From NCBI GenBank assembly GCA_021776735.1, contig JAJFFH010000028.1:62001-126000 (forward strand): DNA of 64,000 nucleotides, read 5' to 3'. Origin of the DNA: Planctomycetota bacterium (lineage in GTDB: Bacteria > Planctomycetota > PLA2). The notes below the pieces were generated by a model. It made no database searches. It was not told the origin of the DNA and saw nothing but the letters and a program-made list of their open reading frames with translations. Of this stretch, positions 47,769 through 57,869 are shown in pieces. Numbering within the stretch: the first letter of the stretch is position 1; each line of letters begins with the position of its first letter. Made by a program: the position numbers and the translations under genes.

Positions 47769-49046
47769 ATGGCCAAGGGCAAACGCGGTGTCGAGGTTCA
47801 GGCTGGGCTGGTCGTACTGGCCGGGCTGGTCGTACTCGGCGTGTTCTTCTACTGGGTGAGCGGCGGCAAGGCGCAGTTCGAGGACAAGACGACCTATATG
47901 GTCCTGTTCCGGCATGGCGGCGGGATCGACGACGGAGATGTCGTACGCCTCGACGGCCGCAAGGTCGGCAAGGTCGATGACGTGGGCCGCAAGGTCGTTT
48001 CGTCCGAGGAGGGCACGATTCGCTATGTGGCCGTCAAGATCATCATCCTGGCCAGCGAAGAGGTTCCTGTCGATTCGAAGATCACCGTATCGAAGACGGT
48101 GACCGGCACGACGACGCTCGATATCGCTTCCGGCACGTCGCCCGATCTCGCGAACGACAAGACCGAGTTGCCCGGCGAAAAGCTGGACTCGTTCGAGGAC
48201 GCGATCCACAACGCCTCGAAGCTCATGGCGGATGTGCGTCAGGTTGTCCAGCACGTTGATGGCGTGGTCGGCCACGCGGATGAGGTCGTCCTCCTGATCA
48301 AGGATGAGGTTGCAAAGATCGATCTCGGACGCATCCAGAGCAAGGTCGAAGCCATTCTCGACGAAACACGGGGAGGCGTCGGCGACGCGCGCGCCATCAT
48401 TGCGGACGCACGCGAGCCGGTTCGTGAGACGCTGGCGAGCATTCGCAGTGGAGCGGCCGAGGCTGACGGGTTCGTGAAGGATCTTCGCGGGGACTGGCGC
48501 GGGATGAAGCCCAAAGTGCATGGGATTCTCGACGACACCCGTGCCGCGACGACCAACGTGAAGGGGATCATCGAGGAGAACCGCGAGCCGGCAAAGACGC
48601 TGATGCAAAACATCAAGGACGCGTCGTTCCGGATCGGCCCCGCCCTGGTGAAACTCGAGACGCTGGCATCCGAGCTGCGCGACACCGTGTACGAGGCGCG
48701 GCCGAAGATCATCCGGACGCTCACGCATGCCGAGAAGGCGCTCGCAAACATCAAGGCGACGACGGAAGACCTCAAGACCGCACCCTGGAAGCTCGTGCGC
48801 AAGGGGTCCGAGGCCGAGGCCACGGCGCTGGCGCTGTTCAACGCAGCACGGCTCTACGTCGAGTCGGCGGAGTCGATCGGCAAGCTCGTGGGTGAGATCG
48901 ACACGCTGCGGCGCCTCGACGCGCTCAAGGATCCGAAGCGACAAGACCAGATCGACGACGTGATGCGCCGCCTTGCGCGGTCCCTCGAAGACTACGACGG
49001 GCGCGAGAAGAGGCTCGTGGAGCTCTTGAAGGAGAAGACCAAGTAG
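47769..49046 (+). CDS. MCE/MlaD-domain protein with long helical C-terminus
   Basis: N-terminal TM, MCE domain GGGIDDGDVVRLDGRKVGKV, follows mlaF. Confidence 0.88.
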   Translation: MAKGKRGVEVQAGLVVLAGLVVLGVFFYWVSGGKAQFEDKTTYMVLFRHGGGIDDGDVVRLDGRKVGKVDDVGRKVVSSEEGTIRYVAVKIIILASEEVPVDSKITVSKTVTGTTTLDIASGTSPDLANDKTELPGEKLDSFEDAIHNASKLMADVRQVVQHVDGVVGHADEVVLLIKDEVAKIDLGRIQSKVEAILDETRGGVGDARAIIADAREPVRETLASIRSGAAEADGFVKDLRGDWRGMKPKVHGILDDTRAATTNVKGIIEENREPAKTLMQNIKDASFRIGPALVKLETLASELRDTVYEARPKIIRTLTHAEKALANIKATTEDLKTAPWKLVRKGSEAEATALALFNAARLYVESAESIGKLVGEIDTLRRLDALKDPKRQDQIDDVMRRLARSLEDYDGREKRLVELLKEKTK

Positions 49047-49406
49047 GCACGTAAGATTGCCTGCGGCGCCCTTGCTAAGGCTCAGGGGCGGCGAGTTTCG
49101 GGGATGGCGCGTGCCGTTGGCCCATTCTCGTCTGGTTCGGGGTTGCTGGCGTGGCGAGCGACGGCTCGCGGGATGCGAACCACGGATGGCGAGATCGGGC
49201 AGCTTGGCCGTCGGTTCTGCACGCGGCGGCAACCTGAACCTCCGGCCAGGAACATTACGATCGCTTGGGCGACTCCTTGAGCGTCGTCCGTCAACATCGC
49301 CGTCCGTTCGCCCTTTTCACAGTCCGGGCGATCCGTTGTTTCGAGCGGTGGCGCACTCGCGCTGCCGGTGCCCTTGAAGACTTGAATCGGAAGAGACAAT
49401 TGAGCC

Positions 49407-50336
49407 ATGCACAAGGTGACCGTAATCGGGGCGGGCAACGTCGGTGCGACGTGTGCCTACCAACTCGCTGATCGCAACATCGCGAACGTGACGATGATCG
49501 ATATCGTCGATGGCATGCCGCAGGGCAAGGCGCTCGACATGGCCCAGTGCGGGGCGATTTTTGACTTCGACGGCAGTATCGAAGGCAGCAATGACCTGAA
49601 GGGTGTTGCGGGCAGCGATGTCGTCGTCGTCACGTCGGGCATTCCGCGCAAGCCGGGCATGGATCGGATGGACCTGCTCAAGACGAACACGGGCATCCTC
49701 AAGGAGGTCTCGGCGGCGATCAAGGAGCACGCCCCCGGCGCGATCGTCATCGTCATTACGAATCCGCTCGACATCATGGCCTACGTTGCGCTCCAGGAAA
49801 CCGGTTTTCCGCGCGAGCGCGTCATGGGGATGGCCGGGGTTCTCGACGCCGCCCGTTATCGCCGCTTCATCGCGTGGGAACTGAACTGCTCCGTGCGCGA
49901 CGTCGCCGCGATGGTGCTCGGCGGCCACGGCCCCCAGATGGTTCCGCTGCCGCGCTTCTCCACGGTCAACGGCGTTCCGATCACCGAGCTGATCCCGGCC
50001 GACCGGATCCAGGCGCTCGTCGATCGCACCCGCACCGGTGGCGGCGAGATCGTGAAGCTACTCAAGACCGGCAGTGCGTTCTATGCCCCGGCCGGCTCGG
50101 CTGCGGTCATGGTCGAAGCGATCCTCCGCGACACCGGCCACATCGTGCCCGCATGCGCGTTCCTCCAGGGTGAGTACGGCTACGAGGGGTTCCATCTCGG
50201 CGTTCCGGTGAGGCTGGGCAAGGGCGGCATCAAGGACATCATCGAGTTGGAACTCTCGGCCGACGAGAAAGCAGCGCTCGATGTGTCGGCCGAGGCCGTA
50301 CGAAAGGGCGTCGCGGACGTAGCGCGGTTCCTGTAG
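49407..50336 (+). CDS. mdh: Malate dehydrogenase
   Basis: IGAGNVGATCAY, TSGIPRKPGMDRMDLL, NPLDIMAYVA. Confidence 0.95.
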   Translation: MHKVTVIGAGNVGATCAYQLADRNIANVTMIDIVDGMPQGKALDMAQCGAIFDFDGSIEGSNDLKGVAGSDVVVVTSGIPRKPGMDRMDLLKTNTGILKEVSAAIKEHAPGAIVIVITNPLDIMAYVALQETGFPRERVMGMAGVLDAARYRRFIAWELNCSVRDVAAMVLGGHGPQMVPLPRFSTVNGVPITELIPADRIQALVDRTRTGGGEIVKLLKTGSAFYAPAGSAAVMVEAILRDTGHIVPACAFLQGEYGYEGFHLGVPVRLGKGGIKDIIELELSADEKAALDVSAEAVRKGVADVARFL

Positions 50337-51446
50337 CCGTTCGCCAGGTCTAGCCGTCTCGGACAACGCAGCCACAGGCCCTGCCTCTGCAGCAGCGCGG
50401 GTACGCTGCTGCGGCGCAATTCGAAGCCACGTGCGTGTGTGGCGGCCTCGATCGTGTCCTCCGTGCGGACACAAGCCGCACGCTCGCCACAAGCCCGCCT
50501 TGGAACTACGCCGAGAACGACCACTGCATGGCGCCATCGTGGCTGTCTTCCATGGCAGCGGGAGTGGATCAGGGCGGCCCCCGGCCATTATGGTCATAGC
50601 ACGCCCACTCCCATGCGAACGTGCCGCGCGACGGCGATAGGGCGGCGCGCGCTCGCGCACCTCGGATGCGCCGGCAGCGCCGCCGTCGGCTCCTGAGTTG
50701 GGCCCCGGTGTCCCCGGAGACTCGGCCCCGAGCCATCGAACCCCGAATGTTCGAACCGCGCTCGGCGTCCGGCGCAGGCTCGACATCACGGGAGCGGCGA
50801 TCGGCCTCGATTTTCATGACTAGCCCACCCGGGCTACCGGCTACTCGTGCACAAGCCGTACCTCGGTCCGGACTTGCACCAGTCGGACATCGACGCCGTT
50901 TGGCAGGTGGCCCGAGCCACTCAGAACCCGCCCCCAAAAGGCGCACGTCGCGGAACGCCGCCGCATGACCTTCGCGCGCTACGGACTCACGCCGCGCCCG
51001 AAGCCCGCGCGTTCGAAGGACACACGCCCTGCCCCTTCACCCCGACTCCGACCAGGTAAGCCCTGCAATACGTCGTCGATGCCGCCGGCAACTGGACGAT
51101 GAACTGTTTCGTCCGCACGGCGGACGCATCAGCGCGACCACGGTGGCGGGTCGGCCGAACGCCCATGCTTGCGAGCGCCGGCCGGGCGGACTCACGCGCC
51201 GGCTTGTTGTTCCCGCGCCTGTTGGCAGGATCGAACGACCGCGGAATCAGCGAGGAGCAAGACGAAAACGCGGACGGCGAGCGAGGACCACGAAGAAGAT
51301 GCATGAGGGTCCATGCGCCGTGCCCGGTCCTGCTCGTGTATCGTGGAAAACCGTTCCAGGTATGGCCTTGGTGCCGGGAGTAGGTCCGGTCCAGTGCGAG
51401 GCGGACAGCGAATACCGGTCTGGCCGAGCGGGTAGGGAGAAACGAC

Positions 51447-51800
51447 ATGAAGCAAGACGACGTGAATCGGAGAGAGAAAGTGCTGCGCGCATTGGCTGAC
51501 GGGCTGGCGGATCTCGGTGGGACCGAGGCGGCGAAGGAGCGACCGGGCACGTACAAGTTGGCCGTGCGGGTGGTCATGGAGGTCTTCGGGCTGTCCGTCC
51601 CTGACAGTTCGGTATCGCAGGACGAAGCGACGCGGGCGTTTGGCTCGCTCGCGGATGTTCCCGACGAGACCGGTCGCGGGCAACTGCACAATCACGAGCT
51701 CATAGCTTGGCTGACACGCCTCGCCAACCCCGAAGGAAAGCCCAAAAACTCCGCGGATGAAGCGCGCGAAGACTCCACAGGCGAACGGTCGGATTCTTGA
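51447..51800 (+). CDS. Small accessory protein of CHAT system
   Basis: Stop overlaps start of next gene; no recognised domain. Confidence 0.6.
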   Translation: MKQDDVNRREKVLRALADGLADLGGTEAAKERPGTYKLAVRVVMEVFGLSVPDSSVSQDEATRAFGSLADVPDETGRGQLHNHELIAWLTRLANPEGKPKNSADEAREDSTGERSDS

Positions 51801-53164
51801 CCACCTCGGCGACAGAGTTTCGGGATCCGGCGGTTTTTTGCTGGGTGTTTCCGTTGCTCCGGACGGACGATCCCCCCGCGAAAGCCCGCCATGTGGAATG
51901 GGAACAAGGACTTGCACAAGAACTGCGTGCCGAGTTGATCCGCCGCGCCGCATCGAGCACCGTTGATGAGATCGAGCGATCGCAGCAGCAGCCGGGCAAT
52001 CCGTTTCGCCGGGTCAAAAGGTGGTCCCTGCGGAGCGCGAACGATGGGAGCGGGCATCCCATTTGGCAGGCCCGGTTCGAGGAGGCTCCCGAAGGCAGTA
52101 TCGGCTACCTCTCCTGTCGGGTGGAGCAAGGAGGGCCGGCCGATCAACAAGCCGTTGGGTCCATCAAGCAGGAGGCCCACGAACTGTTCGAGTCTGTCTT
52201 CGATGGGCGGACCCCACATTACGAGGGGGCGACCTGTGTCTGTGTCGAGTTTTCGGGTGACGCTGCGAAATGGAAAGGTGATCCGACCCTCCGGGCCACG
52301 GCCGCGTCGTCGATCGGCCATGATGCGACGACTTCTTTGAAGTGGATTCCGGTCGAGTTCGGGTGGCTGGGCCTGCGGGACGAGGAGGCACCGATTCCGC
52401 CGTCCATTGTGGTTTATCGGAAGGGCTGCGACGAAAGGGCCATCCACTTCCTCCAACGGATCGTGGGCGATCTTGTGCTGCTCCAAAACAAGCTCGTCAG
52501 GCTCCACGAGGCCTATGCCGCGACGCGACATGAAGTCCGGAAAAAGGAGCCGAAAACGATCCGGTCGCTCGACCCGGAGGCGCTGTCCGACATCTCCTTG
52601 ACCGCGATCGAAAAGGCGACCCAGAACGTCTCCAAGTTCATGAACGAGTTTTCGACAGCACTGGCGGATCAAGAGCGGATCCTGATCGCGACCAGAACCA
52701 GCCTCGCCAACGTGGAGTACGTTGCGCTTGAGGCGCCTAAGCCGAGGGAAACGGGAGTCCCCGAAGACGCCGACGAGCTGCCTTTGACGCATCTAACCCG
52801 GTCTCTGACGCGAGACTTGCGGCACCTGGCCGAACAGATCGAAATCGACCTCAGCTATGGTGCAGCGACCCTTTCCGACGGGGACCGTACGATCACGGCC
52901 CTGCATGTACGCGCGCAGATCATCGACGCGCGCGCGACCCGCCGGAACACGGATCAGGCCTTTTGGCTCGGACTCATAGTCGGCCTGGCTTCCCTGCTAG
53001 TCGGCCTGACTCAGATTCTCCCCGAGAACGGGTGGCCGAGTTGGCGAACCCCCCGCACCGTACTGGGGGCGTCGGTTGCTGCTGTTGTCGTGATCCTGTT
53101 GTTCGTGCTTTGGCGAGGGAGGGCAGAGTGCCGCCGCCGCACCAGCGATCGAAAGGGCAAGTGA
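51797..53164 (+). CDS. Coiled-coil protein with two C-terminal TM helices, CHAT-associated
   Basis: TM segments FWLGLIVGLASLLVGLTQIL and TVLGASVAAVVVILLFVLW; TGA overlaps ATG of TPR-CHAT. Confidence 0.7.
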   Translation: MTTSATEFRDPAVFCWVFPLLRTDDPPAKARHVEWEQGLAQELRAELIRRAASSTVDEIERSQQQPGNPFRRVKRWSLRSANDGSGHPIWQARFEEAPEGSIGYLSCRVEQGGPADQQAVGSIKQEAHELFESVFDGRTPHYEGATCVCVEFSGDAAKWKGDPTLRATAASSIGHDATTSLKWIPVEFGWLGLRDEEAPIPPSIVVYRKGCDERAIHFLQRIVGDLVLLQNKLVRLHEAYAATRHEVRKKEPKTIRSLDPEALSDISLTAIEKATQNVSKFMNEFSTALADQERILIATRTSLANVEYVALEAPKPRETGVPEDADELPLTHLTRSLTRDLRHLAEQIEIDLSYGAATLSDGDRTITALHVRAQIIDARATRRNTDQAFWLGLIVGLASLLVGLTQILPENGWPSWRTPRTVLGASVAAVVVILLFVLWRGRAECRRRTSDRKGK

Positions 53165-56100
53165 TGGAGAAGCCGGAGAAGTCAACCATACTGACCGATA
53201 CGTTCTGGGCGCGAATTGACCGCCAACTTGCAGAGACGCCGCGGAACGAGGCGACGCTACAGCAGATGATGGCCGCAGGTGTGCAGGCCTACCAGAAGGC
53301 CGAATACGAGCCAGCTACCCGGTCTTTTGCCGCAGCGGGTAGGCTCGCGACAAACCTCCGCGACCCCGAGCACCCGGACACGCTGACCACCATGGACAGC
53401 CTGGCGACGACTCTCTTGGCGCGGGGTGACCTTGCGGGTGCGGAGGGGCAGCAGAGGACGGTGCTGGAGTCGCGGCGCCGCGTGCTGGGCGCGGAGCACC
53501 CGGACACGTTGACCAGCATGAACAACCTGGCGGCGACTCTCTTGGCGCGGGGTGACCTTGCGGGTGCGGAGGGGCAGCAGAGGACAGTGCTGGAGTCGCG
53601 GCGCCGCGTGCTGGGCGCGGAGCACCCGGAAACGCTGACCAGCATGAACAACCTGGCGCTGACGCTGATGACGCGGGGTGATCTTGCGGGCGCGGAGGGG
53701 CAGCAACGGACGGTGCTGGAGTTGCGGCGCCGGCTGCAGGGCACGGAGCACGTGGCCACCCTGATCGCCATGAACAACCTGGCAGAGACGCTGCGGGCAC
53801 GGGGTGATCTTGCGGGCGCGGAGGAGCAGCAGCGGACGGTGCTGGAGTCGCGGCGCCGCGTGCTGGGCGCGGAGCACCCGGACACGTTGACCAGCATGAA
53901 CAATCTCTCGGGGACGCTCAAGGCGCGTGGGGATCTCGCGGGTGCGGAGGGCGTGCAGCGGACGGTGCTGGAGTCGCGGCGCCGCGTGCTGGGCGCGGAG
54001 CACCCGGACACGTTGACCAGCATGAGCAACCTGGCGCTGACGCTGATGGCGCGGGGCGACCTTGCGGGTGCGGAGGGGCAGCAGCGGACGGTGCTGTAGG
54101 CGCGGCTCCGGCTGCTGGGCGCTGAGCACCCGAACACGCTGACCGCTAGGGGCAACTTGGCGGTGACGTTGAAGGCGCGGGGCGACCTTGCGAGCGCGGA
54201 GGAGCAGCAGCGAACGGTGCTGGAGGCGCTTCGCCATGTGCTGGGCGCGGAGCACCCGGACACGCTGACCGCCATGGGCAACCTGGCACGGACGTTGAAG
54301 GCGCGGGGCGACCTTGCGGGCGCGGAGGATCTGCTGGCCGAGTCGCTCGATGGTGTTGAGCACCTCCGCGGCCAAGTGGGCGGGGTACTTGAACGGGCGC
54401 GGCTGTCTGGCGCATTCCACACGGATGTCATCAGCGTAGTGTTGGCGGGCGTCCTGGTCCGCAGGAAGAAAACGTCTGTGGACGTTGTGGAGGCTTTGGA
54501 GCGCGGGAGCGGGCGGACGACCCTGGATGTTCTCAGCCGAGGTGGGCTCGACCCGCTCATTCTTGCGCAGAACCGTCTGGATCAGTCGGATTTACTGGCG
54601 TACGGGAACGCTTTGCGTGATGTTCGCCGATTCGAACGGAGCGTTGCCGAGTTCAAGTTCAAGTTTCGAACGGTGCCGGATTCGGAGCAGGACAGGAAGC
54701 GGTTGTCGGACGATCTTGCGCAGGCGCGTTCGGACTTACGTGAAGCGGGCGGACGTTGCTTCGGGTTCGAACGGAAGGTCTTCTCGGCGGCACAGCCGCT
54801 GGGGCTCGAGAGAATTCGAGGTGCGCTCTGTGCGGGCGAGCGGCTCGTCGTGTTCGGTTGGAGCTGGGTGGCCGCCGTCGCCGCCGTCGTGTCGGAAGAC
54901 GCCCACGGCGCAACTGACACGACGCACCTGCTCAGCGAGGACCGCGATGAACTCGCGAGGGGCGAGGCCCTGACGCAACTTGTAACGATGGGGATCGAGC
55001 CCGAGTCTCACCAGGCCCCGCGGCTCGAGGCGGCGCTGGCCCAGGTGGAGAGCCTGCTCACGGCCGACGCCTTGGCGGACTGTCGCGATCGGGTCGCGCG
55101 GCTGCGGGCCAACTACGACGCGGTCTTTGGCAGGGGGCCCGAGGCCAAGCTCCTTGCCGTGCCGACGCTCCCTTGGGAAACGCTCGGGGTCTTGGCGCGT
55201 GCACTGCTGGACATCATCCTGCCTGCGGACCTGCGGGCGGAGCTGGCCAAGGCGCAACGGCTCGACGTGGTTCCGTCGGGTCCGCTGCAGCGGCTTCCGC
55301 TCGAACTGCTGGTGGAAATGGCCGGCGTCGCGGAGCTAGCGGGCAAGCCGATCACCTACGTGCCGTCCGGGACGGTCCTTGCGTTGCAGCGGGCCAAAGC
55401 GCGCACGGGCGCGGACACGAGCGGCGCGACCCTCGCGGGGGATCCGGCCTATCCGCAGCCCGGGGACGGCGGCGCCGAGCGCTCGTTGGCCGAGGTGGCA
55501 CCCTGGAACCTGGGCTATTCAGGTGGAGTGGTGGCTCCGCTGCCGCGCACCCGCGACGAGGTGGAAGACATCGCCGGCCTGTTCGAGCGCTGCGGACACA
55601 AGGCCCGGACGCTGCTCGGCGCCGAGGCGACGGTGGCCGCGGTGCGCGAGCACACCGCCGGAAAGCGGTATCTCCATCTTGCCGCGCACGGTCTGCTCGC
55701 GGGCTCCGACCAGCCGATGGACTCGGCGGTGGTGCTGGCTCCCGCGGCGCCGTCCGGTCGGCCCGAGGGTCGCGTTGGGCGGAACGACGGGTGCTTGCGC
55801 CTGTCCGATCTTTTGGGGGACTGGGGCGACCGGCTTGCGGGCTGCGAACTGGTGACGCTGTCGGCGTGCCGGACCAGCCGGGGGGTGGCGGTCGGCGGCA
55901 GTCTGATGGCGCTGCCCCTGGGACTGTTTCACGCCGGGGCGCGGTGCGTGCTCGCAAGCCTGTGGAAAGTGCCCGACCTTGCGACCTGGCTGCTCATGCG
56001 GCGGTTTTACGAGAATCTGCTCGGGATCGCGCACGGTGACGAGACCGCGGTCTCGCGCGATGTTGTTGCACTGCCGATGCACGGGGCCCTGCGCGAGGCG

Positions 56101-56250
56101 CAACAGTGGTTGCGTGAATTGTCGCGGGACAACATCATGGGGATCCTGGCGGACGCTGGTGCCCAGGACGAGTACTCCAATGTGCCCAAGGATGCCTTCG
56201 TCCATCCTGCCCACTGGGCGGCGTTCGTGCTCATCGGGGATGCGGGGTAG
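53164..56250 (+). pseudogene. TPR-CHAT (caspase-like) protease gene interrupted by in-frame TAG at 54097-54099
   Basis: Same frame before and after TAG; CHAT dyad HLAAHG and LSACRT present. Confidence 0.75.
53368..54340 (+). repeat. 126-bp (42-aa) tandem repeats coding for TPRs, 7 full units plus partial
   Basis: Unit start GAGCACCCGGACACG at 53368 and again exactly 7x126 bp later at 54250. Confidence 0.9.
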
Positions 56251-56327
56251 GGCCAACGGCGGAGCACGAAGCATCGCCGTCCGTTTGCTTTCTTTGCGTC
56301 GGGCCGGCGCCAGCTGCGGCCAGCGCC

Positions 56328-57869
56328 CTACTCGTCGTCGCCGGGTTCGACGATGATGACTTGGCGGTGGCCGATGCTGGCGTCGAGGGGGAGGCCGCCT
56401 GTGATCCAGATGGCGCCGTTGGGGCCGCGCTTGGCCGCGTGGTGGCTGGTCGGATTTGTCAGGGTTGTGTCCGGGACGCGGAACAGCTTGCCTGATTGGC
56501 CGATCGGGAACCACACGTCCATCGTGGTTTGCAGCAGCGCCGGCGACTTGCTGAAGTCTGTGCCGCCGACGATCAGGACGCGGCCGTCTTCGAATGCCGT
56601 CGCGGTGGCGAACGCGCGCTGGTTGCGCATCGTATTGATCGAGCCGACGAAGCCGAAGCCCGGGTCGTAGACCGAAACACCGAGGCTCCCGACGCCGCCC
56701 GCGACCAGCAGGCGGCCGTCGTCGAGGACCGTGCCGGCGGCCAGAAAGTGCACGAAACTCGGCGGCGTGAAGTTGTCCGCGAACGATTCGGTGGCCAAGG
56801 TGAAGCGTGCGCCGCTCGGTGCCGAGGATGTTCCGCCGACGATGACGGCGTCGCCTCCGGCCAGGGTGACCGAGAAGTGTGTCGCGCGGCCCTGCTCCAT
56901 CGTGTTGGCGACCGGCGTCCAGGTGTCGGTGTTCGGATCGTAGATCTCGGCGTCGTCGCGAAAGATCAGGTTGCCACCCGCGTCGAGGTCCTGCCCGCCG
57001 GTGACGAGTACGCGGCCCCCGGGGAGCAGCGTGGCGTGCGCGAACGAGCGCCGCTCGTTCATCGAGGCGGCGGAGTTAAACGTAAACGTCGTCGGATCAA
57101 AGATCTCGCACCCGGAGATCGGCAGGAACGGGTCGTTCGAGACCTCGCCGCCCGCGATCAGGATGCGTCCGTTCGCGAGCGTGATCTGAACGTGCGCCGC
57201 GCGCGCCCGGCGCATCCGGTTTTGGATCACGAAGCTCTGGCGCGAGAACACGACCAGGTTCTCGGCCTGGTCGGTCACGCCGTTGGACGTACGATAACCG
57301 CCGGTCACGATGAAGCGCCCGTTGGGCAGCAACGTCATGCGGTGCAGCCACCGGCCGAGGAGCAGACCGCCCGGAAGTTGCGTGATGTCGTCCGCCCCGG
57401 GAAGGACCGGCCCCTCCTCCTCCGTCTGGAACTTGAACTCGTAGTCGCGGTCCAGCGGACGTCCGTTGAGGTCGAGAACCCCTCGGGTCACGCGGATCGT
57501 GTGCACCGCAAACGGGAAGTACCCGGGCTGCGGCAAAAAGCGCGCGATCGACCGGTTGAGAAACGGAATCGACCGCGACCCGAACACGCGGTCGCCGCTC
57601 TCGGCGATGACCTGGAACGTGTCGGGCGTCAGCGTTGCCGGATCGATCTCGTCGGAGAACACGACGTTTATCTCGGTCGTGAGCGCGATGTCCTGGGAAA
57701 GATCGTTGGGGGTGACCTGGGTCACCTGGAAGGTGACAACCGGGCCGCCGCCGCCCCCGTTGGAACCGCCGCCGCCGCAGGCGCCGAGCGTGGCGACGAA
57801 GACGACTGCGGTCAGAGCGAAGCTGACGCGAGCAACAAGGGACGGGAAACGGAAAGAAAGAGAATCCAA
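56328..57869 (-). CDS. Kelch-type beta-propeller lipoprotein with N-terminal Big_5-like domain
   Basis: Lipobox TLGACGGGG; repeated GGRVLVTGG motifs. Confidence 0.8.
   Translation of the reverse strand: MDSLSFRFPSLVARVSFALTAVVFVATLGACGGGGSNGGGGGPVVTFQVTQVTPNDLSQDIALTTEINVVFSDEIDPATLTPDTFQVIAESGDRVFGSRSIPFLNRSIARFLPQPGYFPFAVHTIRVTRGVLDLNGRPLDRDYEFKFQTEEEGPVLPGADDITQLPGGLLLGRWLHRMTLLPNGRFIVTGGYRTSNGVTDQAENLVVFSRQSFVIQNRMRRARAAHVQITLANGRILIAGGEVSNDPFLPISGCEIFDPTTFTFNSAASMNERRSFAHATLLPGGRVLVTGGQDLDAGGNLIFRDDAEIYDPNTDTWTPVANTMEQGRATHFSVTLAGGDAVIVGGTSSAPSGARFTLATESFADNFTPPSFVHFLAAGTVLDDGRLLVAGGVGSLGVSVYDPGFGFVGSINTMRNQRAFATATAFEDGRVLIVGGTDFSKSPALLQTTMDVWFPIGQSGKLFRVPDTTLTNPTSHHAAKRGPNGAIWITGGLPLDASIGHRQVIIVEPGDDE

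What the first reader, a model, noticed from the sequence alone, without database searches (positions are those of the whole stretch)
51447..56250. CHAT-protease/TPR three-gene system with a two-TM coiled-coil partner
Three tightly overlapping genes: a small protein with no recognised domain, a 455-aa protein ending in two TM helices, and TPR-CHAT with catalytic His (HLAAHG) and Cys (LSACRT) retained. The layout resembles predicted conflict systems in which a CHAT/caspase-like protease is coupled to a membrane partner (e.g. CATRA-type, bacterial gasdermin-type logic). The TM partner is not a recognisable gasdermin. Protease-triggered membrane disruption is inference. It sits beyond a 1.1-kb ORF-poor gap after mdh, as expected for an inserted island.
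Basis: partly seen in the sequence, partly recalled or inferred. Interest (0 to 1): 0.75.

Follow-up and report, generated by a model that had tools for sequence, protein, structure and literature searches.

The report
Inserted protease–membrane-protein gene trio, interrupted
A bacterial chromosome carries an inserted three-gene cluster that pairs a separase-like (TPR-CHAT) protease with an unfamiliar membrane-anchored protein, probably a self-destruct or defence module, but the protease gene as assembled contains a premature stop codon and the two partner proteins have no detectable relatives.

Summary
The three overlapping genes are real: g1 51447-51800 (117 aa), g2 51797-53164 (455 aa, C-terminal two-TM hairpin) and g3 53164-56250 (eight 42-aa TPRs plus a CHAT domain, Pfam E 1e-51, His/Cys dyad conserved in 20 aligned CHATs). 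As assembled, no full-length TPR-CHAT is made. The "inserted island" guess is confirmed: in two same-family genomes mdh and the following convergent kelch-type gene are 88-145 bp apart, against 5,991 bp here. g1 and g2 match no Pfam, PADLOC, NCBIfam or PHROG family, including Pfam CATRA-N, and have no detected relative in up to 392 genomes of the phylum, plasmids, phages or viral contigs. The closest CHAT proteins elsewhere are not seen with such a partner. So "CATRA-type" is not supported and "gasdermin-like logic" stays an analogy. Best reading: a horizontally acquired cytosolic protease plus membrane-anchored substrate/effector module, probably immunity or cell death, now probably inactivated or split in this lineage. 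Mechanism is inferred; the layout occurs once in what I could search.

The parts
50337..51446 (.). Non-coding or decayed stretch at the left end of the inserted segment, after mdh
   Evidence: Negative coding score in all six frames; no Pfam or Rfam match; GC 0.68
51447..51800 (+). g1: 117-aa protein, probably helical with an acidic, Ser-rich tail; Shine-Dalgarno-like TAGGGAG upstream
   Evidence: ORF, coding score positive only in this frame, no family match, single-sequence model helical but pLDDT 50
51797..53164 (+). g2: 455-aa protein; mixed alpha/beta N-terminal part, helical middle, C-terminal two-TM hairpin with both ends predicted cytosolic
   Evidence: ORF, coding score, hydropathy and flanking charges, no family match above cut-off
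52964..53113 (+). g2 TM helices (residues 390-408 and 421-439), short outer loop; basic C-terminal tail GRAECRRRTSDRKGK follows
   Evidence: sub-threshold Phage_holin_2 similarity over 389-447, 18.1 bits against cut-off 32
53164..56250 (+). g3: TPR-CHAT gene, interrupted reading frame
53362..54369 (+). Eight tandem 42-aa (126-bp) TPR units
54097..54099 (+). In-frame TAG where units 1-5 and 7 have GAG (Glu)
55060..56247 (+). CHAT domain; catalytic His codon 55687-55689, Cys codon 55867-55869
   Evidence: PF12770 E 3.5e-52; invariant columns H206, H210, C270 in alignment A1; profile matches Craspase TPR-CHAT chains

Best explanation
A horizontally acquired, cotranscribed three-gene module. g3 is a cytosolic TPR-CHAT cysteine protease (separase/Craspase fold family), whose TPRs would bind a trigger or partner. 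g2 is a membrane-anchored protein with a cytosolic body and a two-TM hairpin, and is the most likely substrate or effector of the protease. g1 is a small adaptor or regulator. The likely mode of action is that a trigger (phage or other stress) activates the CHAT protease, which cleaves g2 and alters or releases its membrane part, stopping growth or killing the cell. Shown: gene layout, overlapping start/stop codons, insertion, catalytic residues, TM hairpin (by hydropathy). Inferred: trigger, cleavage, membrane action, defence role. In this genome g3 has a premature stop, so the module is probably non-functional here, or works as two polypeptides, unless the stop is an assembly error.
For: Overlapping start/stop codons tie the three genes together. 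CHAT dyad intact and profile-related to Craspase TPR-CHAT structures, whose protease cleaves a protein encoded next to it (PMC9729208). g3 has no signal-peptide-like segment, unlike many of the closest CHATs of the phylum. g2 hairpin with basic flanks on the inner side. The whole block is an insertion: mdh and the next gene are adjacent in G001 and G004. g1/g2 have lower GC3 (0.72-0.73) than neighbours (0.82-0.87), fitting foreign origin.
Against: In-frame TAG in g3. No second instance of the trio in any collection searched. No recognised defence genes nearby; neighbours are Mla-type transport, mdh and arginine-type genes. No experimental data. CHAT proteins also serve non-defence roles, and this genome has about seven other CHAT genes without such a partner.
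Confidence: 0.45

Rival explanations
1. [quoted passage not shown]
For: Same number and kind of genes: small protein, a protein with an about 200-residue alpha/beta N-terminal part, and a TPR-protease. The CATRA name and its caspase dependence are from PMC8195603 and PMC12657218; the component layout is from memory.
Against: CATRA-N PF20269 gives no match to g2 even at E 10 nor in the own genome; no genome of the phylum sample over cut-off.
Confidence: 0.15
2. A regulatory, non-lethal module: the CHAT protease releases a membrane-tethered cytosolic factor (regulated proteolysis, as Craspase does with Csx30-RpoE).
For: g2 is mostly cytosolic body plus anchor, so cleavage near residue 380 would free it; Csx30 cleavage precedent.
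Against: No DNA-binding or sigma-factor domain recognised in g1 or g2.
Confidence: 0.2
3. A decaying insertion with no present function: nonsense-mutated protease gene plus orphan partners.
For: TAG in g3; 1.1-kb non-coding stretch; no conserved relatives.
Against: No frameshift or other stop anywhere in about 4.8 kb, codon signal intact after the TAG, CHAT dyad intact: any loss is recent, or the stop is a short-read error inside a repeat array.
Confidence: 0.15
4. g3 is naturally expressed as two polypeptides: a TPR-only protein and a short TPR-CHAT started by reinitiation at about 54157 after AGGGGC.
For: AGGGG lies 4 nt before an in-frame TTG, 57 bp past the stop.
Against: Weak start codon, short spacing; the site arises in a degenerate copy of the repeat.
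Confidence: 0.05

Closest known systems
Craspase TPR-CHAT (Csx29) with Csx30, type III-E CRISPR
   Same: TPR repeats fused to a CHAT protease with His/Cys dyad; substrate encoded beside it; profile match E about 4e-10
   Different: No CRISPR, gRAMP/Cas7-11, Csx30, Csx31 or RpoE gene recognised beside it; g2 is membrane-anchored
Bacterial gasdermin operons (caspase-like or CHAT protease plus bGSDM)
   Same: Protease gene next to a gene for a membrane protein
   Different: g2 is 455 aa with a permanent two-TM hairpin and matches no family; bacterial gasdermins are short and are activated by cleavage about 20 residues from the C terminus (PMC9612521)
CATRA ternary conflict systems
   Same: Three genes with a TPR-protease and a small protein (layout of CATRA from memory)
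   Different: No CATRA-N match
Canu (caspase-nuclease) antiphage loci
   Same: Three-gene protease-plus-proenzyme logic, TPRs in some loci (PMC12799240)
   Different: No MBL-fold nuclease; membrane protein instead
TPR-CHAT proteins of the same phylum
   Same: Closest by CHAT sequence, 37-47% identity for the best hits
   Different: Mostly single genes, many with N-terminal signal-like segments, some with a PDZ domain; none beside a C-terminal two-TM protein

Membership tests
CHAT protease (PF12770) | CHAT domain match above cut-off | tested here: met
   176-178 bits against 24
CHAT protease (PF12770) | His and Cys catalytic residues | tested here: met
   Invariant H210 and C270 in alignment A1
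CHAT protease (PF12770) | Intact reading frame of the whole TPR-CHAT gene | tested here: not met
   TAG at 54097-54099; the CHAT part itself is open
CATRA system | CATRA-N domain in the partner | tested here: not met
   No match at E 10; none in genome. Profile-profile comparison not possible
CATRA system | CATRA-associated small protein | tested here: inconclusive
   g1 matches no Pfam or NCBIfam model, but remote similarity in 117 aa is easily missed
Bacterial gasdermin | Gasdermin N-terminal fold | tested here: inconclusive
   No family match; single-sequence model unusable, pLDDT 42, no PDB fold match at E below 0.001
Craspase / type III-E CRISPR | Adjacent Cas7-11/gRAMP and CRISPR array | tested here: not met
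   No cas-like large gene among the ORFs beside the trio; repeats found at 49000-57500 are TPR and kelch units
Genomic island / insertion | Empty site in relatives | tested here: met
   mdh and kelch-type gene adjacent in G001 and G004
Anti-phage defence system | Protection against phage | not testable with these tools
   No experiment possible; no PADLOC match

The most novel reading that the evidence does not exclude
A new protease-activated membrane-effector module: a TPR-CHAT protease with a previously unseen two-TM effector/substrate family and a new small adaptor, distinct from gasdermin, CATRA, Canu and Craspase.
Probability: 0.3. Interest if true: 0.65.

Novelty: new variant of a known kind. 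Interest (0 to 1): 0.42.

Why it matters
If the trio works as proposed, it adds another membrane effector controlled by a separase-like protease and broadens the parallel with pyroptosis beyond gasdermins. The demonstrated insertion site and intact CHAT dyad make it a concrete candidate, but the interrupted gene and absence of relatives mean a second, intact example is needed first.

Tried and rejected
Weak g2 hits in G163, G288, G318, G067 and G040 were rejected as chance: four of the five loci (L080-L083) were read out and hold no similar gene order, the fifth is a 29-residue match across stop codons. PF20269 hits in six phylum genomes are all below cut-off. Sub-threshold Phage_holin_2, DUF308 and DUF5671 hits cover only the TM region. 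AlphaFold on g2 and g1 without an alignment gave pLDDT 42 and 50; the PDB fold search gave nothing significant. GTDB genome scans with g2 and with the CHAT half found nothing, but they need exact 8-residue stretches and miss distant relatives. The opposite-strand ORF 51692-52792 was rejected by coding score. A Streptomyces plasmid CHAT with a small upstream gene (L084) and other plasmid CHATs were inspected and are not this trio. Gap frames have no Pfam or Rfam match. A CATRA-N reference sequence could not be obtained for profile-profile comparison.

Full report
Observation. The three genes exist where stated. g1 (51447-51800), g2 (51797-53164, TTG start) and g3 (from ATG 53164) overlap by a few bases at each junction. 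A codon-usage score trained on 41 genes of the same genome is positive for g1 and g2 in the stated frame only, and highest in the stated frame for both halves of g3; the opposite-strand 366-aa ORF is thereby rejected. A 455-codon open frame of this composition has a chance of about 1e-6.

The stop codon. Translating 53164-56250 shows one internal stop, TAG at 54097-54099. In the array of eight 126-bp TPR units, units 1-5 and 7 have GAG at this position, so one base difference explains it; the changed unit begins at 53992 and is the sixth. There is no other stop or frameshift, codon signal persists past the stop, and pN/pS between units averages 0.51. The stop is therefore recent, or an error of a short-read assembly in a repeat array. 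As assembled, the cell makes a 311-aa TPR protein without protease. Reinitiation at TTG 54157 after AGGGGC is possible but weak.

The CHAT part. PF12770 matches with 176-178 bits. In an alignment with 19 other CHAT domains (from the phylum and from the same genome) the second His of HLAAHG and the Cys of LSACRT are invariant. A profile from this alignment finds the Craspase TPR-CHAT chains in the PDB at E about 4e-10 and another CHAT structure at 7e-11; the dyad H585/C627 is the catalytic one in Craspase (PMC9729208).

g2 and g1. g2 has two hydrophobic segments, 390-408 and 421-439, separated by about 12 residues, with basic residues before the first and after the second, predicting both ends inside. 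The single-sequence model suggests an alpha/beta part in residues 1-190 and helices in 213-347, but its confidence is too low to use. g1 looks helical with a disordered-looking tail (low confidence). Neither has a match above threshold in Pfam, NCBIfam, PADLOC or PHROGs.

Relatives. g2 has no relative in 149 closest genomes, 392 genomes of the phylum (five weak hits examined and rejected), plasmids, phages, GTDB contigs or viral contigs. g1 has none in 382 genomes, plasmids or viral contigs. The stretch between TPRs and CHAT has only two weak relatives. The nearest CHAT domains (37-47% identity for the best hits) belong mainly to single, apparently exported proteins; three that were checked carry a PDZ domain. 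For the two closest, the contig ends inside or just before the CHAT gene, so their upstream neighbours are unseen. Of 28 CHAT loci read out, none has a same-strand neighbour with two C-terminal TM helices. The class holds only 17 genomes, so sampling is thin.

Insertion. In G001 and G004, of the same family, mdh is followed after 145 and 88 bp by the convergent kelch-type gene, with matching genes on both sides. In the window these are 5,991 bp apart (50337-56327). The trio and the 1.1-kb non-coding stretch before it are thus an insertion (or, less simply, a loss in the ancestor of the two relatives, which share a genus). No tRNA, Rfam element, terminal repeat or mobile gene marks its ends. 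g1 and g2 have lower third-position GC (0.72-0.73) than neighbours.

Mechanism. A cytosolic CHAT protease coupled to a membrane-anchored partner most simply suggests that the partner is cleaved, since substrates of such proteases are commonly encoded next door (statement in PMC9729208; gasdermins in PMC9612521). Whether the outcome is membrane damage or release of a soluble factor cannot be decided; I prefer a death or growth-arrest module at 0.45.

Known systems. It is a CHAT protease by sequence. It is not a CATRA system by the available test (no CATRA-N), though remote homology could not be excluded. It is not a type III-E CRISPR locus. Gasdermin membership is unproven and lacks any supporting match. 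'Works like' remains open for both gasdermin and Craspase logic.

Verdict. Interest 0.42.

Noticed in passing
L011, L018, L020 (CHAT genes of other genomes in the phylum): A PDZ domain lies directly before the CHAT catalytic core in several apparently secreted TPR-CHAT proteins.
   Followed up: partly
G000 contigs C20, C31, C39, C51, C63, C65, C68: The same genome carries about seven further CHAT genes, several of them long single genes ending in a shared FWAAW-x-LWG-type motif; one (C68) appears broken into pieces.
   Followed up: partly
L087, Rhizobium ruizarguesonis plasmid pRlX4: A CHAT gene overlaps a 767-aa hypothetical gene and is flanked at a few kb by two caspase-family genes, a possible protease cluster.
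   Followed up: no
window 50847-51059: Short frame VHKPYLGPDLHQSDIDAVWQVARATQ in the otherwise non-coding gap may be a relic of a gene; no Pfam match.
   Followed up: partly
G077 C159 346176-347018: A CHAT match in another genome of the phylum runs through four stop codons, so broken CHAT genes may not be unique to this window.
   Followed up: no
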